Source: a virus
Strand: one strand, 5' to 3'
Virus record (IMG/VR): IMGVR_UViG_3300047408_000236
Span: 1-61,298 of that record
DNA: 61,298 nucleotides
This document shows, piece by piece, positions 3,167-53,261 of the stretch. The position numbers and the translations under genes were made by a program. Positions within the stretch are counted from its first letter, which is position 1. The number at the start of each line of letters is the position of its first letter. The notes under the pieces are model-generated. The model made no database searches and was not told the origin of the DNA. It saw nothing but the letters and a program-made list of their open reading frames with translations.

Positions 3167-3620
3167 GGTCGAGAAGCGCATCCTCGATGCGATCCGACTC
3201 GGTGCAACCTACAAACTGGCTTCTCAGTACGCCTGTATCGATCCTGCGACGTTCTGGCGATGGGTCGAGAAGGACGCAAACTTTGCGACCAGGGTCAAAG
3301 AGGCCGAGGGTGCGGCTACGGTTGGCTGGCTGGCCAAGATTGAGAAGGCTGCATCGGATGGCAACTGGCAGGCCGCGGCCTGGAAACTCGAACGGCGATA
3401 TCCCGAAGACTACTCGCTGCGCCAGCGGCTCGAGCACACCGGCGCCGATGGTGGGCCCATCGAGATTGACGAACGTTTGATCCTGAGCGAGGCGGAACTT
3501 GACCAGTACGTCCTTACCATCGTTGAACGCGCAGGAGCGCGCCTTGATCAGCCTCGCACGGAACCCCAACCGCGTCTGGCTCCCCCAGAAGGGACCACAA
3601 ACGGAAGGGTATCTCAGTGA
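3129..3620 (+). CDS. terS: terminase small subunit
   Basis: A 163-residue protein with an N-terminal helix-turn-helix (LASQYACIDPATFWRWVEKD) followed by a helical body, as in phage small terminases that recognise the packaging site. It lies immediately upstream of the large subunit and overlaps both neighbours. The ATG at 3129 (MAKGQR) is chosen because the HTH begins soon after; the in-frame extension back to 3072 overlaps the methyltransferase. Confidence 0.75.
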   Translation: MAKGQRASKRSPEVEKRILDAIRLGATYKLASQYACIDPATFWRWVEKDANFATRVKEAEGAATVGWLAKIEKAASDGNWQAAAWKLERRYPEDYSLRQRLEHTGADGGPIEIDERLILSEAELDQYVLTIVERAGARLDQPRTEPQPRLAPPEGTTNGRVSQ

Positions 3621-4968
3621 TGCCGACGAGTTGTACTACGGTGGTCAGGCCGGCGGCGGCAAGACTGAACTGGTCCTCGGCCTAGGGCTGACCGCGCATC
3701 AACGATCAATTATCTTCCGCCGTAACTTCACTCAGTTCAAAGGCGGCGAGGGACTCATCCAGCGCAGTCTCGCTGTGGTCGGGAACCGCGGCCATTTCTC
3801 GTCTCGCATCAATGGCTTGCTTATGAACGACGGCCGCACCATCGAGTTCGCGGGCATCGAAGACCTGGGCGAACTGGGCAAGTGGAAGGGCCGGCCGCAC
3901 GATTTGGTCGCTTTTGACGAACTCAGCGAGTTTATGGAGCAGATGTACACGTTCTTGATGGGCTGGGTACGTACCACGAAGCCCGGTCAGAGGACGCGCG
4001 TTGTCGGCGCCGGTAATCCGCCAACTAGCGTTGAAGGCGAGTGGGTGATTCGTCGCTGGGCACCGTGGCTCGATGCGCAGCACGAACATCCTGCTCGGGC
4101 CGGCGAATTGCGCTGGTACGCACGTGTCGACGACAAGGAAACCGAGGTCGAGGACGGTACGCCGTTCGAGTTCCGCGGCGAGACGATCACCCCGAAGAGC
4201 CGTACCTTCATCCCGGCCAGCCTGAACGACAACCCCATCTTGGCTAGGACCGGATATGCGGCACAGCTCCAGGCCATGCCTGAGCCACTACGCAGCCAGT
4301 TGCTCTACGGCGACTACACGATTGGCCTGAAAGACGATCCGTGGCAGATCATTCCATCACAGTGGGTCGATATGGCCATGCGTCGCTGGCATCCCGAGAT
4401 GCGACCTGAAGGCTCGGCCACGTGCTCCGGTCTGGACGTTGCGCGCGGTGGTGCGGCAAAGACCGTGCTTGCGCAGCGCTGGAACAATTGGTTCGCACCG
4501 CTGCAGCGCTACGCCGGCAAGGAAACGCCCGATGGCCAGGAATCGCGCCGTATCGTCATGCAAGCATTGCTGAACGGTGGCTATGCGAACATTGACGTTG
4601 GTGGACCTGGTGCCGCGGTCGTCGACCTGTGCCGCGAGGTGGATGCTGACGTTGTGCCGGTCAACTTCGGTAGCGGTACGAAACACAAGGACCGCACAAA
4701 CCTGCTCCGGTTCGTGAATGTGCGCGCGTTTATGTATTGGTCGTTCCGGGAAGCGCTCGATCCGGAGAAGGGCGACAACATTATGTTGCCGCCCGATACG
4801 GAGTTGAAAGCGGATTTGTGCGCGCCGCGATGGATGATGCGCGTCTCAGGCATTCAGGTCGAGGACAAGGACGAGATCAGCAAACGGATCGGGCGATCTC
4901 CGGACGCGGGTGATGCGGTCGTGCTGGCCGCGATGCCGCCATTAGCTGCAGGGGTGGCCTTCTACTGA
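3499..4968 (+). CDS. terL: terminase large subunit
   Basis: The packaging motor: 489 residues with an ATPase Walker A-like GGQAGGGKTE (48-57), Walker B LVAFDE (136-141), and a C-terminal nuclease domain beginning near CSGLDVARGG, with later acidic residues (DVGGPG, SPDAGDAV). The start is uncertain: TTG 3499 has a GAGGCGG Shine-Dalgarno about 5 bases upstream; TTG 3523 is the alternative. It overlaps terS by about 120 bases. The stop TGA is shared with the CTG start of the next gene. Confidence 0.9.
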   Translation: MTSTSLPSLNAQERALISLARNPNRVWLPQKGPQTEGYLSDADELYYGGQAGGGKTELVLGLGLTAHQRSIIFRRNFTQFKGGEGLIQRSLAVVGNRGHFSSRINGLLMNDGRTIEFAGIEDLGELGKWKGRPHDLVAFDELSEFMEQMYTFLMGWVRTTKPGQRTRVVGAGNPPTSVEGEWVIRRWAPWLDAQHEHPARAGELRWYARVDDKETEVEDGTPFEFRGETITPKSRTFIPASLNDNPILARTGYAAQLQAMPEPLRSQLLYGDYTIGLKDDPWQIIPSQWVDMAMRRWHPEMRPEGSATCSGLDVARGGAAKTVLAQRWNNWFAPLQRYAGKETPDGQESRRIVMQALLNGGYANIDVGGPGAAVVDLCREVDADVVPVNFGSGTKHKDRTNLLRFVNVRAFMYWSFREALDPEKGDNIMLPPDTELKADLCAPRWMMRVSGIQVEDKDEISKRIGRSPDAGDAVVLAAMPPLAAGVAFY

Positions 4969-5867
4969 AAATCCTGGTCACTGGCGGCGAAGGATTTATC
5001 GGGCGTCATCTGGTTGCGCGACTGCGATCGCTTGAGCACGACGTGACGGTTTACGACCTGATGACCGGCGGCGACTTGCTAAGCCCTACAGCCGTTCTGG
5101 CGAGCATGAGGGGGCACGACATGGTCGTTCACCTCGCCGGACACGCTACGGTGCGGTTGATTGATAATCCGCGCATGCCGATCCAGTCGAACGTGATCGG
5201 TACGCAGAACGTGCTCGAGGCGATGCGGTTCGCCGGCGTGCAGCGTCTCGTGTTCAGCTCGACGAGCGCGGTATACGGTGACACAACAACGTTCCCCACG
5301 CCTGAGGACGCGCCGTTCCCGGTTCAGACCTCGCTGTACGGTGCGTCGAAGATCGCGGCCGAAGCGCTCGTGTCGGCTTACGCTCAGGCGTTTGACATGC
5401 AAGCTACGATCTTCCGGTTCGCGCCGGTCCTGGGCGAGGGCTATCACCGGGGTCACCTGTGGGACTTCTGGAACAAGCTCAAGCAGGACCAGACCAGAAT
5501 CGAGGTACAGGGCGACGGCCAGCAACGTCGGTCGTACGTCTACGTCGGCGATGTGGTCAATGCGCTTATACTTGCTACGGGCGGCGGGATTCCGGAGGTT
5601 ACTGCTGCACCGGTCGCAAACGACCCGGTCGCCGCCGCCCACATCTACAACGTTGGCCACTACCAGTCGTGCACGGTCAACGAATCGCTCGGCTGGTTGT
5701 GCGAATCGCTCCAAATCGAGCCTGAGCGGGTATACACTGGCACCAGTTGGAAGGGCGACAAAGCGCTGACGCTGCTTGACTGTACGCGGCTCATGGCGTT
5801 GGGCTGGACGCCGCAGGTGTCGATAAAGGATGCCGTACTGAGGACCGTGGCATCGTTTGACGGATAA
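4965..5867 (+). CDS. NAD-dependent sugar epimerase/dehydratase, CTG start
   Basis: A 300-residue extended SDR enzyme acting on nucleotide sugars, probably a GDP-heptose or related 4-epimerase/4,6-dehydratase. The Rossmann motif VTGGEGFIG sits at the very N-terminus and the catalytic set is SSTSAVYG plus YGASK. The frame has no ATG, GTG or TTG before 5043, which would delete the NAD site. The CTG at 4965 gives the family's usual beginning (M-KILVTGG) and forms a CTGA overlap with the terL stop. First gene of the sugar cassette. Confidence 0.8.
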   Translation: MKILVTGGEGFIGRHLVARLRSLEHDVTVYDLMTGGDLLSPTAVLASMRGHDMVVHLAGHATVRLIDNPRMPIQSNVIGTQNVLEAMRFAGVQRLVFSSTSAVYGDTTTFPTPEDAPFPVQTSLYGASKIAAEALVSAYAQAFDMQATIFRFAPVLGEGYHRGHLWDFWNKLKQDQTRIEVQGDGQQRRSYVYVGDVVNALILATGGGIPEVTAAPVANDPVAAAHIYNVGHYQSCTVNESLGWLCESLQIEPERVYTGTSWKGDKALTLLDCTRLMALGWTPQVSIKDAVLRTVASFDG

Positions 5868-6558
5868 GCGGGTCGCGCTCGTCACCGGCGGCTCGATGGG
5901 GCTGGGCAAGGCTGTTGCCGAACACTTCACCCGGACGGGAGATTATGAGGTGATTACGTGCGCCACAAAGGGCGACGTGACGTACCACCTCGATGTTGCC
6001 AACCCGGAGGGAGTCGAGCAGTGGTTCATGGGCTGTCGGCGAGTCGATGTGCTCGTGAACAATGCTGCGATCTACGGGCCGGTCGCGCAGATCGACGATA
6101 CGGACCCGCTCGAGTGGTGGGACGCGGTAGCAGTCAACCTATTTGGCCCAATGCTCATGTCGCGTGCTGTGTTGCCGCTGATGCGAGCCCAGGGCTACGG
6201 CAAGATCATCAACATCTCGGGAGCCGGCGCTCGACCACAGACCGAATGCACGGCGTACAACGCCTCGAAGGCCGGCTTGCTGCGGTTCACCGAAGCGCTC
6301 GCGGTCGACCTCGAAGGCGCCGGGATCGATGTCAACGCAGTGGCACCTGGGACGCTCGACACGCGCATGCGGTTACGGTCGGCCCTACCGGACGATCCGG
6401 CGGCCAACATGCGTAAGGCCGTCGACCTGATAGCGTGGCTGGCATCCTCAGCGAGTGACGGGATCACGGGCCGGCTGTTCAGCGCGGTATGGGACGACTG
6501 GGAGCACCTGGGCGATCTCGGCAAAGATGACTACCGCATGCGGCGAGTTGTGCCCTGA
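5857..6558 (+). CDS. short-chain dehydrogenase/reductase
   Basis: A 233-residue classical SDR: TGGSMGLGKA cofactor motif at residues 9-18, NNAA, a catalytic Ser, and YNASK. It probably oxidises or reduces a sugar intermediate made by the surrounding genes, since it is sandwiched between the epimerase and the heptose kinase set. TTG start overlapping the epimerase by 11 bases. The exact substrate cannot be told. Confidence 0.8.
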   Translation: MTDKRVALVTGGSMGLGKAVAEHFTRTGDYEVITCATKGDVTYHLDVANPEGVEQWFMGCRRVDVLVNNAAIYGPVAQIDDTDPLEWWDAVAVNLFGPMLMSRAVLPLMRAQGYGKIINISGAGARPQTECTAYNASKAGLLRFTEALAVDLEGAGIDVNAVAPGTLDTRMRLRSALPDDPAANMRKAVDLIAWLASSASDGITGRLFSAVWDDWEHLGDLGKDDYRMRRVVP

Positions 6559-7007
6559 TGGATCGTCGCACCTTTCTTCATGTACTCGCAACGGTTGGTG
6601 TGCTCACCGGCGCACCGTCATGGCTGCGCGACCCGCGCATGCTCGAACGTTTCGGGATTGTCAATCCGCCGCTCGATGATGATGTGTCCGAGTGGCTCGA
6701 ACCGACTGACCTGGCCGTTTATGGTCGGGACAAGACGTTTGACCTTATCGCTGCGAACGAGAGCAACGAGACTGGCTATGTCTACCTTGCTCGCCCCGGT
6801 GCCGACTATCAACGGCAAACGTTGTTGTCATTCACCATGCCGCCCGGCGGTTTCCTGCGTTGGAGCGCGGAGATGGGCGAGGAAATCTACGGACCAGTGC
6901 GTATCGTCGCGCCCGAGTTTTTCAAGGTCAGCGTGTATGGCACCGACAGCCGCGGTCGAATAGTCTGCGCCGACAAGAACGGCCTGATCCCATTGTCGCT
7001 AGCGTGA
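6558..7007 (+). CDS. exported protein with Tat-like signal, unknown
   Basis: A 149-residue protein. The first 23 residues (MDRRTFLHVLATVG...) match a twin-arginine signal (RRTFL), suggesting export in folded form. The mature part is beta-rich with no recognised motif. It is odd in the middle of a cytoplasmic sugar-nucleotide cassette; it may belong to the glycan's final location. TGATG coupling to the preceding gene. Confidence 0.6.
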   Translation: MDRRTFLHVLATVGVLTGAPSWLRDPRMLERFGIVNPPLDDDVSEWLEPTDLAVYGRDKTFDLIAANESNETGYVYLARPGADYQRQTLLSFTMPPGGFLRWSAEMGEEIYGPVRIVAPEFFKVSVYGTDSRGRIVCADKNGLIPLSLA

Positions 7008-7948
7008 TCATCGCTAGAGCACCACTCCGGGTCACGCTCGGTGGAGGCGGCACGGATATCCCCGCCTATTACACGAAGCACGATGGTCGATGCCTCGCGG
7101 CGGCGATCGACAAGTACGTGTACATCACCATCCACGAGACGTTCGTCGACGACCTGATCGTCAAGTACAGCAAACTCGAACGGGTCGCGTCCGCAGAGTA
7201 CGTCGAGCATCCGATTGTGCGCGAGGCATTGCGCATGCTGTGCATCAGCGGGCGCGGCCTGGAGATTTGTAGCCACGCCGATATTCCAGCCGGGACCGGT
7301 CTGGGCTCGTCGTCCAGCTTCACGGTGGCGTTACTCCAGGCGTTGCACGCGTACCGGCGCCAGACGTGCTCACGCGAGCAGCTCGCTGAGGAAGCGTGCC
7401 GTATTGAAATTGACGCGCTCGAGCAGCCAATCGGTAAGCAGGACCAGTACATCGCGGCGTTCGGCGGCGTGACAATCCTCTCGTTCTACCAGGACGGCCG
7501 CGTGAGTCCTGTGGGCCTGAACCTGCGAGCTGATACGTTCGCGGACCTCGAAGACAATCTACTGTTGTTTTTTACAGGTCACACGCGCAAGGCTGCGGAG
7601 ATTCTCGGCGCCAGCACGATGCCAGATGACGTATCGGCCTCTTGGGTGGCTGGCAATGCCGCAGATGCGCTCGAGGATGGTGATATCAAGGGATTCGCGC
7701 AGCGGATGAACGAGCAATGGCACTTCAAGAATCTGCGTACGCCGGCTGGTGACGATATTCAGCGATGGCGCGACCTCGGGCTGGCGAACGGCGCGCTCGG
7801 CGGAAAATTGGTCGGTGCTGGTGGCGGCGGGTTCCTGATGTTCTATGCAGAGGACAAGGCGCCGCTCAGGCGAGCGATGGCTGAGCAGGGGTTACGCGAG
7901 GTGCGGTTCCGGTTCGACTTCGACGGCGCGCGGGTCATGGCGTCGTGA
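7004..7948 (+). CDS. hddA: GHMP kinase, D-glycero-D-manno-heptose 7-phosphate kinase-like
   Basis: A 314-residue GHMP kinase resembling HddA, which puts phosphate on C1 of heptose 7-phosphate on the way to GDP-heptose. Motifs: IIARAPLRVTLGGGGTD at the N-terminus, PAGTGLGSSSSFTVA (ATP loop), and a late VGAGGGGFLMFY. The GTG start at 7004 (GTGA overlap) begins exactly at the family's usual first strand. The flanking isomerase and nucleotidyltransferase genes support the assignment. Confidence 0.8.
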   Translation: MIIARAPLRVTLGGGGTDIPAYYTKHDGRCLAAAIDKYVYITIHETFVDDLIVKYSKLERVASAEYVEHPIVREALRMLCISGRGLEICSHADIPAGTGLGSSSSFTVALLQALHAYRRQTCSREQLAEEACRIEIDALEQPIGKQDQYIAAFGGVTILSFYQDGRVSPVGLNLRADTFADLEDNLLLFFTGHTRKAAEILGASTMPDDVSASWVAGNAADALEDGDIKGFAQRMNEQWHFKNLRTPAGDDIQRWRDLGLANGALGGKLVGAGGGGFLMFYAEDKAPLRRAMAEQGLREVRFRFDFDGARVMAS

Positions 7949-8622
7949 GCCTGACCGTCGCGATTCTGTGCGGCGGACTTGGTACCCGATTAAAACCGCT
8001 CACCAACACGATGCCGAAGTCATTGGTTGAAGTGGCCGGCGTCCCGTTCATCAACTATCAACTTCGACACTTGGCCAGCCAGGGCATTGAACGCGCGGTG
8101 TTGTGTATCGGATACCGCGGCGGGCAAATCGCAGAGTTTGTCGGCAGCGGCCAGCGCTTCGGGCTGGACGTGGCGTACTCGTCTGATGGCGGCAAGCCGC
8201 TCGGCACGGCAGGCGCAATCAGGAAGGCACTACCGATGCTCGGCTCAGAGTTCGGGGTGCTGTACGGCGACGTATTCCCGCTCTATAGCTTGCAGGCTGT
8301 CGGTGAGTCGATTCTTGGGACAGGCGATGCTGTTATGGCGATACGTTCGCCTGGCCGCGGCAATGTCAAGTACCACGATGGTCGTGTGCTGGCTTACACG
8401 CGCGGCAGTCGATCAGCCTATGGTGATGCTGGATTCTCCGTACTTCATGCCGATGCGTTCCTGCACACGGACGTGACCGATCTGGGCGACTTGTTCAGCG
8501 ACCTTGCGATCGCCGATTCCCTCGACGGGTACGAGGTGACCGAGCCGGTGTACGAGGTTGGCTCGTTCGAAGGGCTCGCGTCATTCGAGCGCTATGTCCT
8601 TCACGACCGAATACCTGTCTGA
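7945..8622 (+). CDS. hddC: sugar-1-phosphate nucleotidyltransferase, HddC-like
   Basis: A 225-residue nucleotidyltransferase of the type that joins a sugar 1-phosphate to GTP or another NTP. The signature LCGGLGTRLKPLT is at residues 8-20, followed by PKSLVEVAGVPFINYQL; GTAGAI lies in mid-protein. The context (heptose kinase before, phosphoheptose isomerase after) points to D-glycero-alpha-D-manno-heptose 1-phosphate guanylyltransferase. The nucleotide cannot be proved from sequence. GTGA overlap at the start. Confidence 0.75.
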   Translation: MSLTVAILCGGLGTRLKPLTNTMPKSLVEVAGVPFINYQLRHLASQGIERAVLCIGYRGGQIAEFVGSGQRFGLDVAYSSDGGKPLGTAGAIRKALPMLGSEFGVLYGDVFPLYSLQAVGESILGTGDAVMAIRSPGRGNVKYHDGRVLAYTRGSRSAYGDAGFSVLHADAFLHTDVTDLGDLFSDLAIADSLDGYEVTEPVYEVGSFEGLASFERYVLHDRIPV

Positions 8623-9145
8623 AGTTGCGGCAATTGCCGCTGGTTTCGACGTTGAGCAGGTTGATGCTTGCGCCGCGCTGCTTGATGGAGCGCAGCGCGT
8701 GTTCGTCCTGGGTAATGGTGGGAGCGCGGCGAACGCGTCGCACTTCGTCAACGATCTGCGCAAGATTGCCGGCATCGAAGCCTATGCGCCGACAGACAAC
8801 GCGGCCGAGCTTACTGCGCGCACGAATGACGATGGCTGGCACACGGCGTTCGCCGGTTGGCTCAAGACCAGCCATCTCGATCTATTCGACCTCGTGTTCG
8901 TGTTGTCGGTTGGCGGCGGCTCGAGCACAACCAGTGCGAACATTGTTGCTGCGCTCGTTTATGCGCGCGAGGCTGGTGCGCAAATCGCGGGGATTGTGGG
9001 CCGAAGCGAGGGCTATACGCGCCAGGTCGCGAACGCCTGCATTGTGGTTCCAAACGTCAATGAGGAGCACGTGACGCCTCACGCTGAATCGTTCCAGAGC
9101 GTGCTGTGCCATCTGCTGGTGTGGCATCCGGCCCTGCAGTCGTGA
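8594..9145 (+). CDS. gmhA: SIS-domain phosphoheptose isomerase, GmhA-like
   Basis: A 183-residue SIS protein with the GmhA signature GNGGSAANASHF (about residues 36-47) and a second loop LSVGGGSSTTSANI. GmhA converts sedoheptulose 7-phosphate to heptose 7-phosphate. Conserved late acidic/His residues occur in EEHVTPHAES. ATG 8594 is chosen because the helix before the motif fits GmhA length (about 190 aa). Overlaps the preceding gene by 29 bases. Confidence 0.8.
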   Translation: MSFTTEYLSEVAAIAAGFDVEQVDACAALLDGAQRVFVLGNGGSAANASHFVNDLRKIAGIEAYAPTDNAAELTARTNDDGWHTAFAGWLKTSHLDLFDLVFVLSVGGGSSTTSANIVAALVYAREAGAQIAGIVGRSEGYTRQVANACIVVPNVNEEHVTPHAESFQSVLCHLLVWHPALQS

Positions 9146-9801
9146 GGCTGTTCGTCGACTCGGCCAATCTTGCGGATATTGAGGATGCGTTGCGCACGGG
9201 CGCGATCAGCGGGGTCACCACGAACCCGAGCATCCTGGCGAAAGAAGGCGTGGCGGACCGAATGCGTCGCTACCAGAAGATTGTCGGGTTGCTCGAAGGC
9301 CAATCGCTGAGCGTAGAACTGGTCGGGACGGATCCAGAGCGCATGATCTTCGAGGCATATGACCTCGCTATTGCGCTGAAGTACCCGAACCTGGCGATCA
9401 AGGTGCCGATGCGCTGGTCGTGGCTACAGGTCGTGCGCGAGTTGCGCGATCACGAGGTGCAGACCAACGTGACGGCGTGCATGACGTATGCCCAGGCGAT
9501 CGTGGGTGCGATGGTCGGCGCGACCTACGTCAGCATGTTCTGGAACCGTATTCGCGACGGTGGCGAGCAGCCGGCTGACATCGTGCGCGCTGTGCGTACA
9601 ACCTTCGACGCGCACGTCTGTAACACTCAGATCATCGTCGGCTCGATCCGCTCAACGCAGGACGTGACCGACGCCATCATGGCCGGTGCTGACATCGTGA
9701 CCGTGCCGCCGCAGTTCCTCGCACCATTGTGCGAGCATCCGAAGACCGACGAAGTGATCAGCCAGTTCCTGCGGGACGCTAAACAACCCATTCACGTCTA
9801 A
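9142..9801 (+). CDS. transaldolase / fructose-6-phosphate aldolase-like
   Basis: A 219-residue short transaldolase starting RLFVDSANLADIEDAL, with GVTTNPS and the Schiff-base lysine in NLAIKVP (K87). Transaldolases of this size make sedoheptulose 7-phosphate, the substrate of the isomerase encoded just upstream, so the phage could feed its own heptose route. GTG start in a GTGA overlap. Aldolase activity on another sugar is possible. Confidence 0.8.
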   Translation: MRLFVDSANLADIEDALRTGAISGVTTNPSILAKEGVADRMRRYQKIVGLLEGQSLSVELVGTDPERMIFEAYDLAIALKYPNLAIKVPMRWSWLQVVRELRDHEVQTNVTACMTYAQAIVGAMVGATYVSMFWNRIRDGGEQPADIVRAVRTTFDAHVCNTQIIVGSIRSTQDVTDAIMAGADIVTVPPQFLAPLCEHPKTDEVISQFLRDAKQPIHV

Positions 9802-9831
9802 CCCGTCCGCCTGGAGGTGGGACCGACAACC

Positions 9832-11331
9832 ATGCCGAACCCATTTCAGGCGATAGGGAAAGCCTTGCGCGGCGATTATCTGTCGCACAAGTTCACGCCG
9901 CTCGACGCCACAATGAACTGGCAGTACGTCAATCACCTCGTGTACACGGCGAACACGATCCCGTACTCGCAGGATTATGGCGGCGACGGCAACTCGGCCG
10001 TATTTGCCTGTTTGCGAGCGCTGGCGTACGCGAGCATTGAGGCGCCGCTTCGTGTCTGGCAACTGGACACCAAGCAGGAACGCGAGCCGCTGTTCGTCAG
10101 CCCGATCCTCGATCTGTTTGACGAGCCGCATCCCGAGCTCGACCTGAACGAGATCCGCTGGTGGTCGGCATGGGCGCGGCATATCGACGGCAACGCGTAC
10201 GTGCTCAAGGTGAGGTCGGGCAATGCGACCAGGGGAACACCGGTCGAGTTGTGGCCGATCAGCCCGACCAGGATGCGGCCACATACTGAGCGTGGCTCGA
10301 ACAACTTTATCGACTGGTACGAACTCGATCGCTACCAGGGCGGGCCGCCCCAGGAAATCCCCGTAGAAAACGTTATCCACTTCAAGCTGGGCGTTGATCC
10401 GTACGATACGCGCAAGGGTATCGCGCCGCTGAAACGGCTCGTACGCGAGATCGCCAGTGATGGCGAGGCCACGCGCTACGCCGATGCGTTGCTTAGAAAC
10501 TTCGGTACGCCAGGTCTGGTAGCCAAACTGCCGGCCGAGACGATGCTGGCGCCAAAACAGATCGAGGAACTCAAGGCGAGCATCAGCCAATCGTTTGGCA
10601 GCGAGAACCGCGGTCGAGTCGGCGTGCTGTCTGGCGGCGCGGACATGGAGCAGTTCGGGTTCTCGCCCGACCAGTTGAACCTGAAGGTGCTACACGACGT
10701 GCCCGAGACACGCATCGCCGCGGTCATGGGCGTCGACCCGCTGGTAGCAAGGCTGGGCGTTGGGCTCGAGCAGACCAGCAACTACGCGAGCGCTCGTCAG
10801 GTCCGCGAGAATTTCACTGAGCTGACCATTGTCCCGTTGTGGGTAATGGATGAGTCGAAGTGGAACCGCAAGCTCAAGACTGACTTCACCGATGATCGCA
10901 GCATCGTCATCGCCCACGACCTGAGCCAGGTTCGTAGCTTGCAGGAAGACGAGAACGCCAAGCATCTGCGATTGCGCGAAGACTTCAAGGCAGGGGTGAT
11001 CACGCGCGAGATGGCGCTCCGCGGTCTGGGCTACGACTCTGACTTGCCGCCCGAGGACACGCTCGCCGTGCCGTCAGGGCTCACGTACGTGCGCGTAGCC
11101 GACGCGGTAACTGACCCGACTGCTACCCCGGCTTTGCCGCCGCCGTTGCCTGGCGCGCCTCCTGTGCAGCCTGCGGTACCTCCGGGCGGGAAGGCGCGCG
11201 GTGACGCGTTCGCTTCGGTGGTGCAGAGCATCGTGGATCAGGCTGCCGGCGACTTCGCCGACGATCTTCAGCGGCTCCAGGACGGTCAGCAGAAGCGTGT
11301 GACGAACGGGCTCGTCAATGGTAGTCACTGA
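9832..11331 (+). CDS. HK97-family portal protein
   Basis: A 499-residue portal that forms the DNA gate of the capsid. Typical features are the early SAVFACLRALAYASIEAPLR segment, an internal VIHFKLGVDPYD...KGIAPL region and a late Pro-rich tail (about residues 440-470). GGAGG lies at 9812-9816. ATG 9832 gives a slightly long spacing, and GTG 9817 is in frame but too close. It restarts the head gene order after the sugar cassette. Confidence 0.85.
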   Translation: MPNPFQAIGKALRGDYLSHKFTPLDATMNWQYVNHLVYTANTIPYSQDYGGDGNSAVFACLRALAYASIEAPLRVWQLDTKQEREPLFVSPILDLFDEPHPELDLNEIRWWSAWARHIDGNAYVLKVRSGNATRGTPVELWPISPTRMRPHTERGSNNFIDWYELDRYQGGPPQEIPVENVIHFKLGVDPYDTRKGIAPLKRLVREIASDGEATRYADALLRNFGTPGLVAKLPAETMLAPKQIEELKASISQSFGSENRGRVGVLSGGADMEQFGFSPDQLNLKVLHDVPETRIAAVMGVDPLVARLGVGLEQTSNYASARQVRENFTELTIVPLWVMDESKWNRKLKTDFTDDRSIVIAHDLSQVRSLQEDENAKHLRLREDFKAGVITREMALRGLGYDSDLPPEDTLAVPSGLTYVRVADAVTDPTATPALPPPLPGAPPVQPAVPPGGKARGDAFASVVQSIVDQAAGDFADDLQRLQDGQQKRVTNGLVNGSH

Positions 11332-12351: not shown

Positions 12352-12560
12352 CCAAACGGCGCGCGAAGGCGCCGGCACTCACGCCTCACGGGTTCGATCT
12401 GGCTTACGGGAAAGATTCGGCCGCGCAGCCGGGTATGGTCATGTTCAGAATCGCTAACGAGGGCGTAATCAAGTGGGAGCTGAACATGCCGCCCGAGGAG
12501 TTTCTGGTCCTGGCGCACGCGTTCGAGAACGTGGCTCGAGCCGTCGCCGCGGACGTGTAA
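12348..12560 (+). CDS. small hypothetical protein
   Basis: A 70-residue protein of unknown family with GTGA coupling to the gene before and TAATG coupling to the glycosyltransferase after. The segment IKWELNMPPEEFLVLAHAF looks like a small beta-hairpin/helix fold. No function can be assigned. Confidence 0.55.
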   Translation: MTKRRAKAPALTPHGFDLAYGKDSAAQPGMVMFRIANEGVIKWELNMPPEEFLVLAHAFENVARAVAADV

Positions 12561-13681
12561 TGCTCGGTCGCGCACCGCGCGTGCTCGCCCTGACTGGCGA
12601 TGAAACCGGCTGCAGCCTTTGGCGAATCTGGCAGCCATTCGCTGAGCTCGAACGCCGCGGCTTTATCGCCGAGTGGTCGCACAAGAATGACAGCGACAAG
12701 GTGCTGCCGCTCGTTGCGGCCGGTCGGTACGACGCGGTCATTACGCCGCGGATCGTCTGGCCGGTCGAGGGCATTGGCGAGCAGTGGGTCAACACGATTC
12801 ACAAGGCCGGCCTGGCCTGGCTGTACGAGATCGACGACGACATCTTTTCGCCCAGGATTGTCGATCGGCAGATGCGCGTCTTTCCGGCCGAGGCGGCCAA
12901 AGGTCGCGACCAGCTCGAATGGGAACGTAACGAGCGGATCAAGATGCTCACCGTGTGCGACGGCGTGACGGTGTCGAGCCGGCGACTGGCGACGATTGCG
13001 CGTCAGTACGCACCAGCAGCAACGCCTGTTTATCACATCCCCAATAGCATCGATGCGAAGTGGTTCAGGTCAACGCTCCGCGGCATCGGTCGCATCCCCG
13101 AACTTGAGGGCAAGTTGACGGTTGGCTGGGCTGGCGGCGCACGCGAAGAGGCCGACATGAAGCCGCTTGCTGAGGCATGGGCGATCATCGCTGAGCGCTA
13201 CCCCGAGGTCGAGTTCGTGATTCAGGGTCATATGAGCGACTCGCTCTACCACTCGATTCCGGATGAACGGCGGCACTCGCTGCCGTGGCTGGAATTGCAC
13301 GAGTACCCGCGGGCGCTCATCAACATCGATATTGGCTGCTGCATTGTGGCGCCGCTCGTGTTCAACACCTCGAAAACGTGCATCAAGTGGTACGAGATGA
13401 CGCTCGCTGGTGCCGTGTGCGTTGTCAGCCCGACGTTGTACGGGCGCGAGGTGACCGATGGTGAGGATGCGCTGGTCGCTGAGACGCCCGAGCAGATAGT
13501 CACGGCGCTGAGCCGACTGATTGAGTCTGAGGATCTGCGCCGGACGATCAGCCGTAATGCTCGGCGCGCGGTCATGGAGCGCCACAGCTTAGAGAACAAC
13601 TGGCATAAGTGGCCGTTGGCCTGGTCAGACGCAATTGAACGATTCCGCGCGAAGCCGAGACTGATTCTCGCTTCCGCTTAG
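12560..13681 (+). CDS. GT-B glycosyltransferase (GT4-like)
   Basis: A 373-residue glycosyltransferase. The C-terminal nucleotide-sugar half has VGWAGGAREEADM (about residue 190), then KWYEMTLAGAVCVVS and a DGEDALVAETPEQIV tail, all typical of GT4 enzymes. It lies among head genes, so it is probably expressed late and could glycosylate virion or cell-surface targets using sugars from the neighbouring cassettes. Confidence 0.75.
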   Translation: MLGRAPRVLALTGDETGCSLWRIWQPFAELERRGFIAEWSHKNDSDKVLPLVAAGRYDAVITPRIVWPVEGIGEQWVNTIHKAGLAWLYEIDDDIFSPRIVDRQMRVFPAEAAKGRDQLEWERNERIKMLTVCDGVTVSSRRLATIARQYAPAATPVYHIPNSIDAKWFRSTLRGIGRIPELEGKLTVGWAGGAREEADMKPLAEAWAIIAERYPEVEFVIQGHMSDSLYHSIPDERRHSLPWLELHEYPRALINIDIGCCIVAPLVFNTSKTCIKWYEMTLAGAVCVVSPTLYGREVTDGEDALVAETPEQIVTALSRLIESEDLRRTISRNARRAVMERHSLENNWHKWPLAWSDAIERFRAKPRLILASA

Positions 13682-16109: not shown

Positions 16110-16368
16110 TGAATACGTGGTGCAGCTATACGGCACCGGTGGCGATTACGTTACCGACGCGTTCACCGATCAAGACTTATCGCTGGCCAGTAATCGCGAG
16201 ATGGTGATAGACAGCGGCGGCAAAATCTACGTCTGGAACCAGCGCAACGCCCAATGGCGAGAATCAGCCGGTGTCATCACGCTCGGCAAGGAAATAGTCA
16301 AGCCGGCTGAACCCGAGCCCGAACCTGAGCACGAGCCCGAGCCAAAGGTGGCCGATAAGGACAAGTGA
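16102..16368 (+). CDS. small acidic protein with Glu-Pro repeats
   Basis: An 88-residue protein: a small beta-rich N-terminal domain (VVQLYGTGGDYVTDAF) and a Glu-Pro repeat tail (about residues 68-82). Position right after the capsid suggests a head accessory protein, but there is no motif to prove it. Its stop overlaps the GTG of the glycosyltransferase. Confidence 0.55.
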   Translation: MADEYVVQLYGTGGDYVTDAFTDQDLSLASNREMVIDSGGKIYVWNQRNAQWRESAGVITLGKEIVKPAEPEPEPEHEPEPKVADKDK

Positions 16369-16958
16369 AGGCGCCGTCGTTCACGTTCATTGTGCCGACG
16401 CATCGCAATGATCGGCCGATACCGCGTTGCCTCAACAGCATCGCGCCGCAGCTCGATCCGTCCGATGAGGTGATCGTGGTTGGCGACGTGCATGATGGGC
16501 CCTTGCCGAACGTCGAATCATGGGTAGCGTCTTACGGCTCGCAGTTCCGCTATGTGAGTTTGGACGCGGGCCATCACTGCTTTGGTCACTGTCAGAATAA
16601 TCTCGGCATCGAGCAGGCCAAAGGAACATACCTTCATTTCAACGACGACGATGACGTCTGGACGCCGGACGCGGTGGCGCTCATGCGAAGAAGCGTCAGC
16701 ATGTTTCCCGACATTGCGCTGCTGTTTCGGTTCCACTCGTACTTTGGCCTGGACTTCTGGGATATGGCCGGCCACTTTGAGCGCAACTACATCGGTGGCC
16801 ATTGCCTGGTCGCGCCGAACGTTCCGGACAAGATCGGATCATGGACGTGCGACTACACCGGGGATTTCGACTACGTCGAGAGCACGGTGAACAATTTCGG
16901 TGGGCCGGACAGGGCGATCTGGGTCAACGAGTTCGTAGCGCGAGCGCGACCAGGATGA
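16365..16958 (+). CDS. GT2-like glycosyltransferase
   Basis: A 197-residue GT-A protein: N-terminal FIVPTHRNDRPIPRCLNSI and the metal-binding acidic cluster HFNDDDDVW (about residue 88). It is short for the family, essentially the catalytic core only. First gene of the second glycan cassette; GTGA overlap with the preceding gene. Confidence 0.75.
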   Translation: MKAPSFTFIVPTHRNDRPIPRCLNSIAPQLDPSDEVIVVGDVHDGPLPNVESWVASYGSQFRYVSLDAGHHCFGHCQNNLGIEQAKGTYLHFNDDDDVWTPDAVALMRRSVSMFPDIALLFRFHSYFGLDFWDMAGHFERNYIGGHCLVAPNVPDKIGSWTCDYTGDFDYVESTVNNFGGPDRAIWVNEFVARARPG

Positions 16959-17794
16959 TTCCCGCACCGACCAACAACTACACGGATTACCGAGACTGCT
17001 TGCGCGAGGCGGTTGCGCAGCAGCCCGAGGAATGGACGTTCAAGTCCGATCCGCGGTACCAGCGGGTGCTCGAGCATGTTGACCATTACCAGGGCGTCAG
17101 ATTCATCGTGCAGATCAAGCAGGAGTACGCGGCGTACTGGTCGAGGGCGCTCTCGATATTGCCGGCCATCGTTGAGGAGAATGACCGTTACGGCAAGCCG
17201 ATCACTGACACGTTCCAGGAGATCGGGCTGACGTGCTCGCCGTCGAACCTGCGCTATTTGAGCCAGGCATTGCGATTGTGGACGCATGCGCTCGAGATGG
17301 GCATGGAACGCATGCACGTGGTCGAGTTGGGCGGCGGCTACGGTGGGCTGGCACTGTACGTCCATCGGCTCGCATCGTTGTTCCCGAGCGTAGAGCTCGC
17401 TTGGTACACGATCGTCGACTTGCCGGAAGCCGCGGACATTCAGGAGATGGTGTTTGCTGAATGGGGCGTGCCGGCCATGACGGTGAATGGACTGGACGAG
17501 GTTGCGCTCGAATGGTGTCTCGACCATGCCGATGAGACGCAGGCGCCGCGGTTTCTGTTCTCAGCTTATGCCTTCAGCGAGTTCGATGAGGAAACGCGCG
17601 ACTACTACGCCGAGCGTGTTGCGAAGCATTGCGAGCATGGCGTGCTGATCTGGAACTTTACCAACGGTCCGCACGAGAAACTAGCGGAACGGCCGGTCGG
17701 TGGGCCGGTCTATCAGTTCATCAATAAGCCGTTACGCACCAATCTAGATCAACCGGCCATGTATCCGGAACCCATCCAGCTCGTGAGGTTCTAG
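16955..17794 (+). CDS. putative sugar O-methyltransferase
   Basis: A 279-residue SAM-dependent enzyme with VELGGGYGGLALYVHRL (about residues 120-136) as motif I and YTIVDLPEAADIQ as the following acidic strand, a pattern seen in putative sugar O-methyltransferases of glycan clusters. ATG 16955 is in an ATGA overlap; longer in-frame starts lie inside the glycosyltransferase. Confidence 0.65.
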   Translation: MIPAPTNNYTDYRDCLREAVAQQPEEWTFKSDPRYQRVLEHVDHYQGVRFIVQIKQEYAAYWSRALSILPAIVEENDRYGKPITDTFQEIGLTCSPSNLRYLSQALRLWTHALEMGMERMHVVELGGGYGGLALYVHRLASLFPSVELAWYTIVDLPEAADIQEMVFAEWGVPAMTVNGLDEVALEWCLDHADETQAPRFLFSAYAFSEFDEETRDYYAERVAKHCEHGVLIWNFTNGPHEKLAERPVGGPVYQFINKPLRTNLDQPAMYPEPIQLVRF

Positions 17795-18927
17795 TGGTTT
17801 CGGCCCCGGTCAAACGCTACCCGCTCGCGCACGTGACGTACGGCGACGAGGAGATGGCCGCGGTCATGATGACGTTGAGGGCTGGCCAGACCACGTGCGG
17901 GCCTCAGGTGAAAGAGTTTGAGCGGTCCTTTGCCGAGTATGTCGGTCGCGAACATGCCATCATGGTCAACTCGGGCTCGAGCGCTGACTTGCTGTGCGCG
18001 TTCGGGCTGGGACCGGCTGAGCCTGGCGACGAGGTGCTGGTGCCCGCGGTGACGTGGCCGACACAGATCTGGTCGTGCACGATGGCTGGCTACACGGTGC
18101 GGCTCGTCGACGTCGACCCGACTACGTTGCAGATGGACCTTGCCGACTTGAAGCGCAAGGTCAACATCCATACGCGTTGTGTGTTCCTGACGCACGTGCT
18201 CGGCAACGTCGGCAACCTCGACGACTTGGACGATGTTGATATTCCAATTCTCGAGGACTGCTGCGAGGCGATGGGTGCTCGCTGGCGCGGCAAGCATGTC
18301 GGGACGTTCGGTTCGGCCGCGGCGTTCTCGTTTTTCTTCAGCCACCTCCTCAACACGATGGAGGGCGGGATGGTGGTGACGGACTCGCCGATCGATGAGC
18401 GCGACTACCGGCTATGGCGTTCACACGGCTGGGAGCCGAAGGTCGATTTTCCGTTCTGGTTCCCGACGTGGGGTTTGAACGTGCGGCCGACCGAGATCCA
18501 GGGCGCGTTCGGTAATGTCCAGATGACGCGGCTCGAAGGTTTTCGGAAAGCTCGAGCACGCAATTTCGACCGACTCATGGCCGCCATCCCGTGGGACTGG
18601 CTGAACGGCATAGCCGTATTGCCTGAATGTGAACCGGCATGGCATGGCTTCCCGGTGATGGTTGTCGAGGATGCACCGTTCTGCAAAACCGACTTGTGCC
18701 GGTACCTCGATGCGCATGGCGTCGAGACGCGGCCGATTGTGGCAGGTAACTTTGCCGAGCAGCCCGTAGCGCAGGGCCACCCACAGATCATCGCTGAGCA
18801 TCTGCCGGGCGCGGAACACATCCATACGCACGGGTTCTATATCGGGATCTCATCGTTTGATGATGAGGACGGCGCGGCTTACGTCGGCGAGGTTGTGCGC
18901 GACTTCCTACGAGACACTAAGTGCTGA
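17794..18927 (+). CDS. DegT-family PLP enzyme with His in place of the PLP lysine (sugar 3-dehydratase type)
   Basis: A 377-residue DegT/DnrJ/EryC1/StrS protein. Family aminotransferases bind PLP through a lysine before the TxxGGG loop; here the equivalent segment reads [15 protein letters not shown], with His184 at that place. The same Lys-to-His change is known in ColD and RfbH/E1-type sugar 3-dehydratases, so removal of a C3 hydroxyl (a 3-deoxy sugar) is predicted rather than amination. Other PLP-site residues are present (EDCCEAMG). GTG start shares a base with the preceding TAG. Confidence 0.75.
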
Positions 18928-19559
18928 TCGCCATGCGCGACCTTGTCGAGCGCTACGACGTGACACCGAAAGCGGTCCTACACGTCGGCGCCCATCTTGG
19001 CGAAGAGGCTCCTGATTATCAGGCCGTGGGTGTTGAGCGCGTCTTGTGGATTGAGGCGAACAGAGCGCTGATGCCGGCGCTACAGGCGCACGTAGCGGGA
19101 TTCGCTGGTCAGCGAGCGTTGCAGGCTACGGTGAGCGACGTCAATGACGAGCCGGTGACGCTGCGACTGACGACCTTCTCGATGGCGTCTTCGATCCTGC
19201 CGCTCAAGGAGCACCTCAGGTTCTACCCGTCGATGCCCGAGGTCGGTGGGCAACTGGATATGAGCACCACAGTCGATATGTTGCTCGAGCAGCACGGCGA
19301 GTCGCCCGCGTTCGATATGGCCAACCTCGATGTGGAGGGCGCCGAGTTGTACGTGCTACGCGGCATGGCATCGGTCATGCCAAGTTTGAAGTGGGTCTAT
19401 ACCGAGGTCAATCACGAGGAGATGTACGAGGGCTGCGTCCTGGTGTCGCACATGGACGACTATCTTGGCGGCTTCGGGTTCAAGCGAGTAGCTATTCAGG
19501 ACGCGTATATCGGCAGTCAGATGATGGGCTTCGCGGATGCGCTCTATGCCCGAATCTAG
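18921..19559 (+). CDS. FkbM-family methyltransferase
   Basis: A 212-residue methyltransferase: AVLHVGAHLGEEAPDYQ (SAM motif, about residues 19-35), a strand VLWIEANRAL, and the FkbM hallmark NLDVEGAELYVLRGM (about residues 134-148). It probably methylates a sugar hydroxyl. GTG 18921 or ATG 18933 could be the start. Overlaps both neighbours. Confidence 0.75.
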   Translation: MLIAMRDLVERYDVTPKAVLHVGAHLGEEAPDYQAVGVERVLWIEANRALMPALQAHVAGFAGQRALQATVSDVNDEPVTLRLTTFSMASSILPLKEHLRFYPSMPEVGGQLDMSTTVDMLLEQHGESPAFDMANLDVEGAELYVLRGMASVMPSLKWVYTEVNHEEMYEGCVLVSHMDDYLGGFGFKRVAIQDAYIGSQMMGFADALYARI

Positions 19560-20331
19560 CCTGCAAGTCATCTGCTTTAGCAAAGACCGGCCGCTGCAGC
19601 TTCACGGGTACCTGACCTCGTTCTACCGGCACTGCGAGCAGAACGCGGACGTGAAAGTGCTGGTGCAGTCGCAGCCTCAGTGGTTCGCTGATGCGTACGG
19701 TCAAGTCGAATCCGAATTTCCTCAGGTCGAGTTCTGCCACGAGACAGACTTTCGAACGGACCTCGAATCGCTGATTGGCGATACCGAGTACACCATGTTC
19801 GGCTGCGACGACGTCGTGTTCACACGCTCGTTCGAGATACGGTTCGACGAGGGCGTCATTGGGGTATCGCTGCGACTCGGGAACCACATCACGCGCGATA
19901 TGTTCGGCGCCCCGCTGTCACAGCCGACCATGTTTCGTCGGGGTAATCAGTGGCCGGTGGTTGAGGGCGTGGGCGATTGGGGCTATCCGTGGGAAGTGCT
20001 GGGCACGATCTACCGAACCGACTTCGTCAAACGCATGGCGGCGCGCGTGCAGGCCAACTCGCCCAGCCAGCTCGAAGAACGCGGCTCGCGCTGTTGGGCC
20101 GAGGAAACGGACGCGCGCCTGCTGGCATCGTGGGCCCTGTCGCGGCTTGTGGTGCCGACAGTGAACCTCGTGCAGCAGGAGTTCCCGAACGGGATCTGCG
20201 GCAACGTGCCGCTCGATGTCGGCTTCCTGCTCGACTGCTGGAACCACGGTATGCGATTGGACGTGGACCGATACGCGAACATGGCGCCCGAGTCGTGGCG
20301 TATCCCTGATTTCTTCTTGAGGCGGGCATGA
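19537..20331 (+). CDS. putative glycosyltransferase (GT-A-like)
   Basis: A 264-residue protein starting VICFSKDRPLQLHGYLTSF, the beginning typical of GT-A-like sugar transferases, with an acidic pair in YTMFGCDDVVF (about residue 89) where the metal site is expected. It overlaps FkbM and the next glycosyltransferase. ATG 19537 or 19546 is the start. No closer family recognised. Confidence 0.6.
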   Translation: MRSMPESSLQVICFSKDRPLQLHGYLTSFYRHCEQNADVKVLVQSQPQWFADAYGQVESEFPQVEFCHETDFRTDLESLIGDTEYTMFGCDDVVFTRSFEIRFDEGVIGVSLRLGNHITRDMFGAPLSQPTMFRRGNQWPVVEGVGDWGYPWEVLGTIYRTDFVKRMAARVQANSPSQLEERGSRCWAEETDARLLASWALSRLVVPTVNLVQQEFPNGICGNVPLDVGFLLDCWNHGMRLDVDRYANMAPESWRIPDFFLRRA

Positions 20332-21053
20332 CGGCCTGGGCGTTCACGCTCGCGTACAACGAGGCGCCGCTGATCCGGTATTGGGTTCGAGCCTATCGAG
20401 ATTTCTGCGACAAGGTCATCGTCTACGTTGACATTGGCTCAGATGACGGGACGGCTACGCTCGCGCGGCGTGAGGGCGCTGAGGTGCGGCCTTACGGACC
20501 AAGTGATCTGGACGACGTTGCCTTCGTTGCCTTCGCTCAGGAGCACTACAGAGAGGCGCGCGGCCATGCCGATTGGGTGATCTGGGTCGACGCCGACGAG
20601 ATTCTGTACCACCCGCACATCGAGCAGCGACTTGTCGAACTGCGCGCTCAGGGGGTGAACTTTCCGACCGTCGCGGGCTACAGCATGATGGCCGATCACC
20701 CGCCGACCGGACTGGATCAGATCTACGACCAGATCCAGACAGGTTTTCCTTCACGAGCGTACGGCAAGGTTTGCATCTTCGACCCGATGCTTGACGTTCA
20801 GTGGGCAACCGGCAAGCACACCGCGACTGCCGTCGGCGCCGTGTCTGATGATGGCTCAGACCCGTTGAAGTTGCTGCACTACCGCTGGCTGGGCGAGGAC
20901 TACTTTATGCAACGCAACTGGCGGAACTTCAGACGAGTGAACGCACTCAACAAGGCCATGCAGCACGGCAAGGAGATTTATCCCGGTTATCAAGGGGAGT
21001 ACAGCCCGCAGTGGTACGCCGAACGCCGCAGCATGGTCGAGGTTTGCGTATGA
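20328..21053 (+). CDS. GT2/GT92-like glycosyltransferase
   Basis: A 241-residue enzyme: AFTLAYNEAPLIRYWVRAY at the N-terminus, YVDIGSDDGTATLA, and the catalytic WVDADEIL (about residues 85-92). Starts in an ATGA overlap. Third transferase of this cassette, so the product is probably an oligosaccharide, not a single sugar. Confidence 0.75.
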   Translation: MTAWAFTLAYNEAPLIRYWVRAYRDFCDKVIVYVDIGSDDGTATLARREGAEVRPYGPSDLDDVAFVAFAQEHYREARGHADWVIWVDADEILYHPHIEQRLVELRAQGVNFPTVAGYSMMADHPPTGLDQIYDQIQTGFPSRAYGKVCIFDPMLDVQWATGKHTATAVGAVSDDGSDPLKLLHYRWLGEDYFMQRNWRNFRRVNALNKAMQHGKEIYPGYQGEYSPQWYAERRSMVEVCV

Positions 21054-21451
21054 CTACGGGCGTGGCGTTCGCGGTTCAGGCATACGTCGAGGAACAGGCC
21101 CAGGATGTGGTGTCACTGCTCAAGGCGTGCGGCTGGCAGGATAACGCGATCCCGACGTACGAGGTTCTGGCTGAGGCTTCGATGACCGGCTGCGCGTTTG
21201 TCGCGGTCAGGGACGGTCACGTGGTCGGGTTCATTAGGGTGATCAGTGATGGCGAGGTGGTGTCGTACGTGACGGAGGTGGCCGTGGATGCAGGGGCAAG
21301 ATTCCAGGGGATCGGGCGAGCGCTGATTGACGCTGTGGCTGCCGAGTTCCCGAAGGCGCGCATCGATCTGCTGTCGACGTCGAGTGCGCAGGAGTTCTAC
21401 GACACTCTCTGCTTTACGCGGAAGTCTGGTTATCGGAGATGGCCGCAGTGA
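21050..21451 (+). CDS. GNAT-family N-acetyltransferase
   Basis: A 133-residue acetyltransferase with the acetyl-CoA loop ARFQGIGRALIDA (about residues 83-95) after the strand VVSYVTEVAVD. The following gene is a lysine-containing sugar aminotransferase, so the likely job is acetylating an amino sugar. ATGA overlap with the preceding gene. Confidence 0.75.
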   Translation: MTTGVAFAVQAYVEEQAQDVVSLLKACGWQDNAIPTYEVLAEASMTGCAFVAVRDGHVVGFIRVISDGEVVSYVTEVAVDAGARFQGIGRALIDAVAAEFPKARIDLLSTSSAQEFYDTLCFTRKSGYRRWPQ

Positions 21452-53129: not shown

Positions 53130-53163
53130 AGGAAGCCCTCCAGCACCCCTTTTGATCCCGCGT

Positions 53164-53192
53164 AATGTAGAACGCAAGTTCTAGGCTTTCAA
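53164..53192 (-). promoter_or_regulatory. integrase promoter with internal palindrome
   Basis: Reverse strand: TTGAAA (53192-53187), 17 bases, TACATT (53169-53164). TAGAAC-GCAA-GTTCTA (53168-53183) overlaps the spacer and the -10 edge, a likely operator. Expected start about 53157, giving a short leader with GGAGGG before GTG 53129. Confidence 0.55.
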
Positions 53193-53261
53193 GGGGCTGG
53201 GGTTGGTTAGACGGTGAACTGGTGCGATAACAACGGTTGGGCGGCCGGGCACGGGCGGCAG

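What the first reader, a model, noticed from the sequence alone, without database searches (positions are those of the whole stretch)
4965..9801. A nearly complete GDP-heptose pathway inserted between terminase and portal
Transaldolase (sedoheptulose 7-P), GmhA-like isomerase, HddA-like kinase and HddC-like guanylyltransferase are consecutive, with an epimerase and an SDR to modify the product. Only the heptose bisphosphate phosphatase step (GmhB) is not seen and could come from the host. The genes are coupled by NTGA overlaps into the late structural operon, so the sugar is made during particle assembly. Virion glycosylation or host-surface change are possible uses.
Basis: partly seen in the sequence, partly recalled or inferred. 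Interest (0 to 1): 0.88.

Follow-up and report, generated by a model that had tools for sequence, protein, structure and literature searches.

The report
Phage cassette for activated heptose sugar
A bacterial virus carries, inside the block of genes that builds its head, a set of sugar-making genes that very probably produces an activated seven-carbon sugar, with one step left to the host; similar gene sets were known from a few viruses, but not in this arrangement in the papers searched here.

Summary
Between TerL and portal lie seven tightly packed ORFs: epimerase, SDR, a lone ORF, GHMP kinase, nucleotidyltransferase (NT), SIS isomerase and transaldolase. GmhB is absent. A heptose pathway is well supported. 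In 80 bacterial/archaeal loci the kinase's relatives sit with NT (71), SIS (67), transaldolase (60) and GmhB (59); 52 have all four. GmhB and transaldolase are fused in one viral and two bacterial loci. The SIS model matches solved GmhA structures best, and the transaldolase keeps its active site. Two corrections: the NT is not an HddC but falls in a third clade beside HddC and MurU, so the nucleotide is unknown; the kinase is HddA-like but outside the canonical HddA group. The terL-portal junction is a cargo site: 7 of 18 related loci carry cassette genes, 10 lack them. A glycosyltransferase in the head block remains in relatives without the cassette. Best reading: a trimmed bacterial nucleotide-heptose cluster, with GmhB supplied by the host, feeding phage glycosyltransferases late in infection. 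Virion versus host surface is undecided. Heptose genes in phages are already in print (PMC7378029).

The parts
3499..4968 (+). TerL, left border of the cassette
   Evidence: phrog_979 terminase large subunit 8.9e-32
4965..5867 (+). NAD-dependent epimerase/dehydratase, GalE-1-like; CTG start inferred from the TGA overlap and the Rossmann motif
   Evidence: Pfam PF01370 4.1e-46; best solved chain 3ehe GalE-1 188 bits; HldD model TIGR02197 only 54 bits; frame read
5857..6558 (+). short-chain dehydrogenase/reductase (FabG-like), TTG start; sugar-modifying step by position in the bacterial cluster
   Evidence: PF00106 1.9e-37; same position in the bacterial clusters
6558..7007 (+). lone ORF of 149 aa with an RR-containing N-terminus; not shared by the related cassettes
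   Evidence: no family; no relative in viral contigs; absent from L002-L006
7004..7948 (+). GHMP sugar kinase, HddA-like: proposed heptose 7-phosphate kinase (makes the 1,7-bisphosphate)
   Evidence: NCBIfam HddA 131 bits, next family 66, cut-off 600; solved HddA chains 4usm, 3k85, 4n3o best; tree
7945..8622 (+). sugar-1-phosphate nucleotidyltransferase of a third clade, neither HddC nor MurU; nucleotide unknown
   Evidence: MurU 107, HddC 73.5 bits; tree of 56 rows
8594..9145 (+). SIS isomerase, GmhA-like: proposed sedoheptulose 7-phosphate isomerase with metal-site residues H50, D54, E165, H173
   Evidence: columns; model, pLDDT 89.9; the 23 best Foldseek rows all GmhA/phosphoheptose isomerase
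9142..9801 (+). TalC-type transaldolase: proposed supply of sedoheptulose 7-phosphate
   Evidence: TIGR00875 168 bits; 3r8r TAL 151 bits versus FSA about 70; active site and tree
9817..11331 (+). portal protein, right border (ATG at 9832 likelier)
   Evidence: PF04860 7.7e-44
12560..13681 (+). glycosyltransferase between head-morphogenesis and protease genes, GT-B/GT4-like; candidate user of the sugar
   Evidence: PF13524 3e-10; phrog_7162; kept in relatives without the cassette; model of low to middling confidence
16365..22539 (+). second sugar module: GT2 16365-16958, sugar O-methyltransferase-like 16802-17794, DegT aminotransferase 17794-18927, FkbM methyltransferase 18921-19559, unknown 19537-20331, GT2 20328-21053, GNAT 21011-21451, DegT aminotransferase 21439-22539
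   Evidence: also in L146 and L159

Best explanation
The cassette is a phage-trimmed bacterial cluster for a nucleotide-activated heptose. Inferred flow: transaldolase makes sedoheptulose 7-phosphate; [quoted passage not shown] the kinase adds the 1-phosphate; a host phosphatase (GmhB or another) removes the 7-phosphate; the NT makes NDP-heptose; epimerase and SDR modify it, perhaps together with the aminotransferase, acetyltransferase and methyltransferase module after the head genes. Being in the late head operon, the donor is made during particle assembly and used by phage glycosyltransferases on a glycan of the virion or the host surface. Shown here: gene content, order, purifying selection, family and fold, conserved active sites, linkage of these families to GmhB and transaldolase. 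Inferred: each reaction, the nucleotide, the phosphatase's source and the acceptor.
For: The families co-occur in 80 bacterial/archaeal loci (52 with NT, SIS, GmhB and transaldolase), often in the order kinase-NT-SIS-GmhB-transaldolase (23 of 54 loci with ample flanks); control loci centred on HddC-like genes had transaldolase in 0 of 12. Single open frames join GmhB to transaldolase in L007 (virus), L037 and L051, and NT to GmhB in 12 bacterial loci. Kinase nearest to solved HddA chains. SIS fold GmhA; H, D, E, H invariant in 13 of 13 viral and 66 of 66 bacterial rows against H, E, Q, H in four canonical rows. Transaldolase keeps D6, N28, E59, K87, N109, T111, S131, F133; E59 and F133 are the transaldolase, not F6P-aldolase, state (residue meanings recalled). 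Its TalC-type enzyme replaced the cluster's own type in the same slot, which argues that the activity matters there. pN/pS 0.11-0.56.
Against: No GmhB in the record, and in only 15 of 80 viral kinase loci. No NCBIfam cut-off is reached by any cassette enzyme. NT and kinase fall outside the canonical HddC and HddA groups. SIS metal site differs at two of four positions. The host is unknown, so host GmhB is unproved. No acceptor is shown.
Confidence: 0.75

Rival explanations
1. The sugar goes to the host surface (superinfection exclusion or lysogenic conversion) and not to the virion.
For: The phage looks temperate: integrase 52203-53177 and a Cro/C1-type regulator 53262-53795. Phage LPS-type genes are usually read this way (PMC7029224, section read).
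Against: The cassette is inside the head block and not beside the repressor; a glycosyltransferase is kept in the head block of relatives without the cassette.
Confidence: 0.4
2. The enzymes make another activated sugar: SIS, kinase and NT have moved to a non-heptose substrate.
For: All are divergent from characterised enzymes; the SIS metal site is changed at two positions.
Against: GmhB-type phosphatase and transaldolase are tied to the same families by neighbourhood and fusion; SIS structure matches GmhA best.
Confidence: 0.15
3. The transaldolase is an ordinary phage talC that shifts host pentose phosphate flow and is only next to sugar genes.
For: It lies with TalC-type enzymes and 502 phage records hold a relative, mostly cyanophages.
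Against: Same slot is filled by a transaldolase of another type in the bacterial clusters, and by GmhB-transaldolase fusions; it is kept in the related cassette phages.
Confidence: 0.1
4. The sugar modifies phage DNA.
For: Phage-made activated pentose is put on DNA in Shewanella phage Thanatos (PMC12838424; start of abstract seen).
Against: No base-hydroxylating or hypermodification gene among the proteins scanned (not all ORFs were scanned).
Confidence: 0.04

Closest known systems
[quoted passage not shown] PMC10680097, passages seen)
   Same: Same four core steps from sedoheptulose 7-phosphate; GmhB also lies outside the capsule cluster there.
   Different: No transaldolase in the 12 HddC-centred control loci; NT and kinase of the phage are outside the HddC and HddA groups; SIS metal site altered.
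Unnamed bacterial/archaeal cluster epimerase - UDP-glucose-dehydrogenase-like - SDR - Gfo/Idh - kinase - NT - SIS - GmhB - transaldolase (for example L055)
   Same: Gene order and clades of kinase and NT; SIS residue signature.
   Different: The phage lacks the dehydrogenase, Gfo/Idh and GmhB and has a TalC-type transaldolase.
Heptose genes of Synechococcus phage SynMITS9220M01 (PMC7378029, passage)
   Same: Phage-borne talC, heptose kinase, phosphoheptose isomerase, epimerase, plus NTs and phosphatases.
   Different: Myovirus-type genome of 190 kb, genes in a glycan region; kinase 32% identical over part.
Caulobacter phage Cr30 heptose genes
   Same: Epimerase, GT2, heptose kinase and phosphoheptose isomerase in a row.
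   Different: No NT, GmhB or transaldolase found in the stretch; not among head genes in the stretch shown.
Viral contig L007 (IMGVR_UViG_3300033061_002769)
   Same: Epimerase, kinase, NT, SIS.
   Different: Has GmhB, fused to a cluster-type transaldolase, and Gfo/Idh.

Membership tests
Canonical GDP-heptose pathway (GmhA-HddA-GmhB-HddC) | GmhA-type SIS fold | tested here: met
   Foldseek ranks 1-23 all phosphoheptose isomerase/GmhA, TM 0.74-0.81 by query
Canonical GDP-heptose pathway (GmhA-HddA-GmhB-HddC) | GmhA zinc ligands H61, E65, Q175, H183 (PMC5387315 passage) | tested here: not met
   H, D, E, H in the window and all 79 cluster-type rows; conservative, still metal-capable
Canonical GDP-heptose pathway (GmhA-HddA-GmhB-HddC) | HddA-family kinase | tested here: inconclusive
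   best family and best solved chains HddA, but 131 bits against a cut-off of 600 and outside the canonical group (support 88-89)
Canonical GDP-heptose pathway (GmhA-HddA-GmhB-HddC) | HddC guanylyltransferase | tested here: not met
   third clade, 100/99 branch apart from 14 HddC-like and 10 MurU-like rows
Canonical GDP-heptose pathway (GmhA-HddA-GmhB-HddC) | GmhB phosphatase | tested here: not met
   absent from the record; record may be incomplete
Canonical GDP-heptose pathway (GmhA-HddA-GmhB-HddC) | guanosine nucleotide used | not testable with these tools
   needs enzyme assay
Transaldolase-linked bacterial heptose cluster (unnamed) | kinase and NT in its clades | tested here: met
Transaldolase-linked bacterial heptose cluster (unnamed) | cluster-type transaldolase | tested here: not met
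   window group lies with TalC chains 3r8r and 3s0c
Transaldolase-linked bacterial heptose cluster (unnamed) | GmhB, dehydrogenase and Gfo/Idh genes | tested here: not met
Phage-borne heptose genes (Cr30, SynMITS9220M01) | heptose kinase-like plus phosphoheptose-isomerase-like genes in a phage genome | tested here: met
Transaldolase (TalC type) | Schiff-base lysine and transaldolase-state residues | tested here: met
   residue equivalences to TalB and FSA are recalled

The most novel reading that the evidence does not exclude
The phage builds its own unusual activated heptose, turned by the second module into an amino-, acetyl- or methyl-heptose, and puts it on its capsid with a head-operon glycosyltransferase: a self-supplied virion glycan assembled from two sugar modules on either side of the head genes. 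The two modules go together where whole-size records can be judged (both in G000 and G003, neither in G576 and G580), which is only four records.
Probability: 0.3. Interest if true: 0.75.

Novelty: new variant of a known kind. Interest (0 to 1): 0.55.

Why it matters
It links three things that are usually seen apart: a transaldolase that can supply the seven-carbon precursor, an uncharacterised but widespread bacterial/archaeal heptose cluster with its own NT clade and SIS signature, and phage head assembly. If the product is heptose on virions, it gives a direct test of what virion glycosylation is for; if it is on the cell, it is a new kind of lysogenic or late surface change. The NT clade and the H/D/E/H isomerase are good targets for finding a new activated sugar.

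Tried and rejected
Assembly error or bacterial carry-over: rejected, because five other viral contigs, L002-L006 from five data sets by their names, keep the cassette order on the portal side; L003/L004 and L005/L006 give identical or near-identical scores and are probably near copies, so the independent phages are fewer.

Lone ORF 6558-7007 as the missing phosphatase: no family and no HAD-type motif seen by eye; no relative found, so nothing more could be learned.

MurU-type recycling: rejected as a reading of the NT, because the NT lies outside the MurU clade and the neighbours are heptose-type.

Epimerase as ADP-heptose epimerase HldD: 54 bits against 111 for dTDP-glucose dehydratase and 98 for GalE; not supported.

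Host search: T/P-rich proteins in L149, L154 and L156 suggested Chloroflexota (own knowledge); 4 of 301 genomes of the phylum of G025 had a portal relative at 1e-20, only 32-35% identical. No host is claimed.

Glycosyltransferase donor: no solved relative by sequence; model mean pLDDT 67.8 with residues 246-306 below 50; Foldseek gives many GT-B enzymes at 9-15% identity. Donor not inferable.

Papers: eight searches. None of the listings showed a paper on a transaldolase-SIS-kinase-NT cassette in a phage head operon; only listings and the passages named were seen, so this is not proof of absence.
Full report
What is there. The window is one whole IMG/VR virus record of 61,298 bases. Between TerL (3499-4968) and portal (9817-11331) lie seven same-strand ORFs with overlaps of 1 to 29 bases: epimerase, SDR, a lone ORF, GHMP kinase, nucleotidyltransferase (NT), SIS isomerase and transaldolase. 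Four of the seven junctions are NTGA overlaps. Terminase genes lie before it and portal, head morphogenesis, protease and major head protein after it, so the cassette is inside the head block. G+C is even across the record. All six named genes are under purifying selection against L002, L004 or L005 (pN/pS 0.11-0.56; TerL and portal 0.08-0.28); the transaldolase changes fastest.

Family scores. Best NCBIfam models are HddA for the kinase (131 bits, cut-off 600), MurU then mannose-1-phosphate guanylyltransferase then HddC for the NT (107, 82.5, 73.5), GmhA for the SIS protein (47, cut-off 209) and FSA/TalC for the transaldolase (168, cut-off 246). None reaches its cut-off, so by score alone the pathway would be a guess. 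The following tests carry the case.

Neighbourhood. Within 8 kb of the kinase, NT is found in 71, SIS in 67, epimerase in 63, transaldolase in 60, GmhB in 59 and SDR in 46 of 80; 52 have NT, SIS, GmhB and transaldolase together. Of 54 loci with at least 6 kb left and 5 kb right of the kinase, 43 have all four and 23 keep the order kinase-NT-SIS-GmhB-transaldolase. In L055 (Chloroflexi) the line is epimerase, UDP-glucose-dehydrogenase-like gene, SDR, Gfo/Idh-like gene, kinase, NT, SIS, GmhB, transaldolase (the two added names are my reading of the sequences). As a control, 12 loci centred on HddC-like genes had a kinase in 8, SIS in 4, GmhB in 2 and transaldolase in 0; their flanks are shorter, so this is a rough control. 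Two of them, L140 and L142, show canonical kinase-GmhA-HddC-GmhB clusters.

Fusions. GmhB and transaldolase share one open frame in L007 (virus), L037 and L051; NT and GmhB share one in 12 bacterial loci and two viral ones. These tie the transaldolase and the phosphatase to the same pathway.

Active sites and fold. The SIS model (14-row alignment, pLDDT 89.9) matches phosphoheptose isomerases in all of the 23 best Foldseek rows, ahead of DiaA, YckF and hexuloisomerase. The zinc ligands of GmhA (H61, E65, H183, Q175; PMC5387315, passages) correspond to H50, D54, H173 and E165, invariant in 13 of 13 viral and 66 of 66 bacterial-cluster rows, against H, E, H, Q in four canonical-type rows. The solved GmhA mutant Q175E (5ltz) shows that a glutamate has been placed there before. 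The transaldolase keeps all eight residues checked; E59 and F133 are the transaldolase state (meanings recalled).

Trees. NT (56 rows): window, L002, L004 and L005 group with 24 bacterial-cluster rows and L007 across a 100/99 branch, away from 14 HddC-like rows (99/97) and 10 MurU-like rows (100/99). Only every third bacterial row was used. Kinase (59 rows, quick method): five canonical HddA rows, three of them solved chains, stand apart from the cluster and viral rows (supports 88-89, not starred). Transaldolase (38 rows, quick): the window group lies with the solved TalC chains 3r8r and 3s0c, apart (100) from the bacterial-cluster type. So the window's phage group put a transaldolase of another origin in the same slot.

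The missing step. GmhB is not in the record; one of 22 records searched had it (L007). In 80 viral kinase loci (best of at least 332) SIS is found in 72, epimerase in 61, transaldolase in 35, NT in 31, SDR in 16 and GmhB in 15; 9 have NT, SIS, GmhB and transaldolase. IMG/VR contigs can include misjudged bacterial pieces, so these are counts of contigs. In C. jejuni GmhB also lies outside the capsule cluster (PMC10680097, passages).

The site. A portal scan gave 18 loci. Cassette genes lie just before portal in 7 (L002, L003, L144, L145, L146, L147, L148; in L145 only the transaldolase and in L148 only SIS and transaldolase are in view). Ten (L149-L158) show none; nine of these show a related TerL, with about 0.4 to 2.7 kb to the portal, and L158 an unrelated-looking one. 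L159 has 998 bases before portal and no cassette gene in them. L149 and L156 carry other ORFs there. The junction is therefore a cargo site. The two long records without it, G576 (78 kb) and G580 (50.5 kb), lack the kinase altogether.

Use. The glycosyltransferase at 12560-13681 stays at its place in relatives with and without the cassette (65-90% identical in 7 others). A second sugar module follows the major head protein; its aminotransferase is in G000, G003 and G583 but not in G576 or G580. I read this as glycosylation being old in this phage group and the heptose cassette being an added donor supply. Whether the glycan is on the virion or the cell is not decided: the phage looks temperate.

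Known or new. Heptose genes in phages are in print: SynMITS9220M01 has talC, heptose kinase, phosphoheptose isomerase and an epimerase (PMC7378029, passage), and Cr30 has kinase and isomerase. Among 50,697 phage records the window's kinase finds 13 relatives, all under 60% identical, and its SIS protein none at 1e-5. So this is a new variant of a known kind. Sugar and nucleotide should be written 'NDP-heptose (proposed)' until assayed.

Noticed in passing
window 16365-22539: A second sugar module after the major head protein with two DegT aminotransferases, two GT2 enzymes, FkbM and NanM-like methyltransferases and a GNAT acetyltransferase.
   Followed up: partly
L028-L107: A widespread bacterial and archaeal cluster (Methanoperedens, Methanospirillum, Legionella, Lachnospiraceae, Verrucomicrobia, Acidobacteria, Chloroflexi) with heptose-type kinase, NT, SIS, GmhB and transaldolase; its product is unknown to me.
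   Followed up: partly
L007 12271-13530: GmhB and transaldolase in a single ORF of 419 aa in a viral contig.
   Followed up: yes
L149 7723-9798 and L156 1961-3427: Secreted-looking ORFs between terL and portal where the window has the cassette; L156 carries long T/P-rich repeats.
   Followed up: partly
window 45889-47550, minus strand: A second terminase-like ORF (phrog_2666, 61 bits) beside an HNH protein of 535 aa, far from the terminase used by the head block.
   Followed up: no
window 52203-53795, minus strand: Integrase and a Cro/C1-type regulator: the phage looks temperate.
   Followed up: no
window 1916-3166: ParB-like domain fused to an N6/N4 DNA methylase just before the terminase genes.
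   Followed up: no
window 31864-33687: RCC1-like repeat protein in the tail region.
   Followed up: no
L008 10923-11531 and beyond: A viral contig with terminase on the opposite strand beside a similar cassette; its NT reads as two pieces in different frames.
   Followed up: partly
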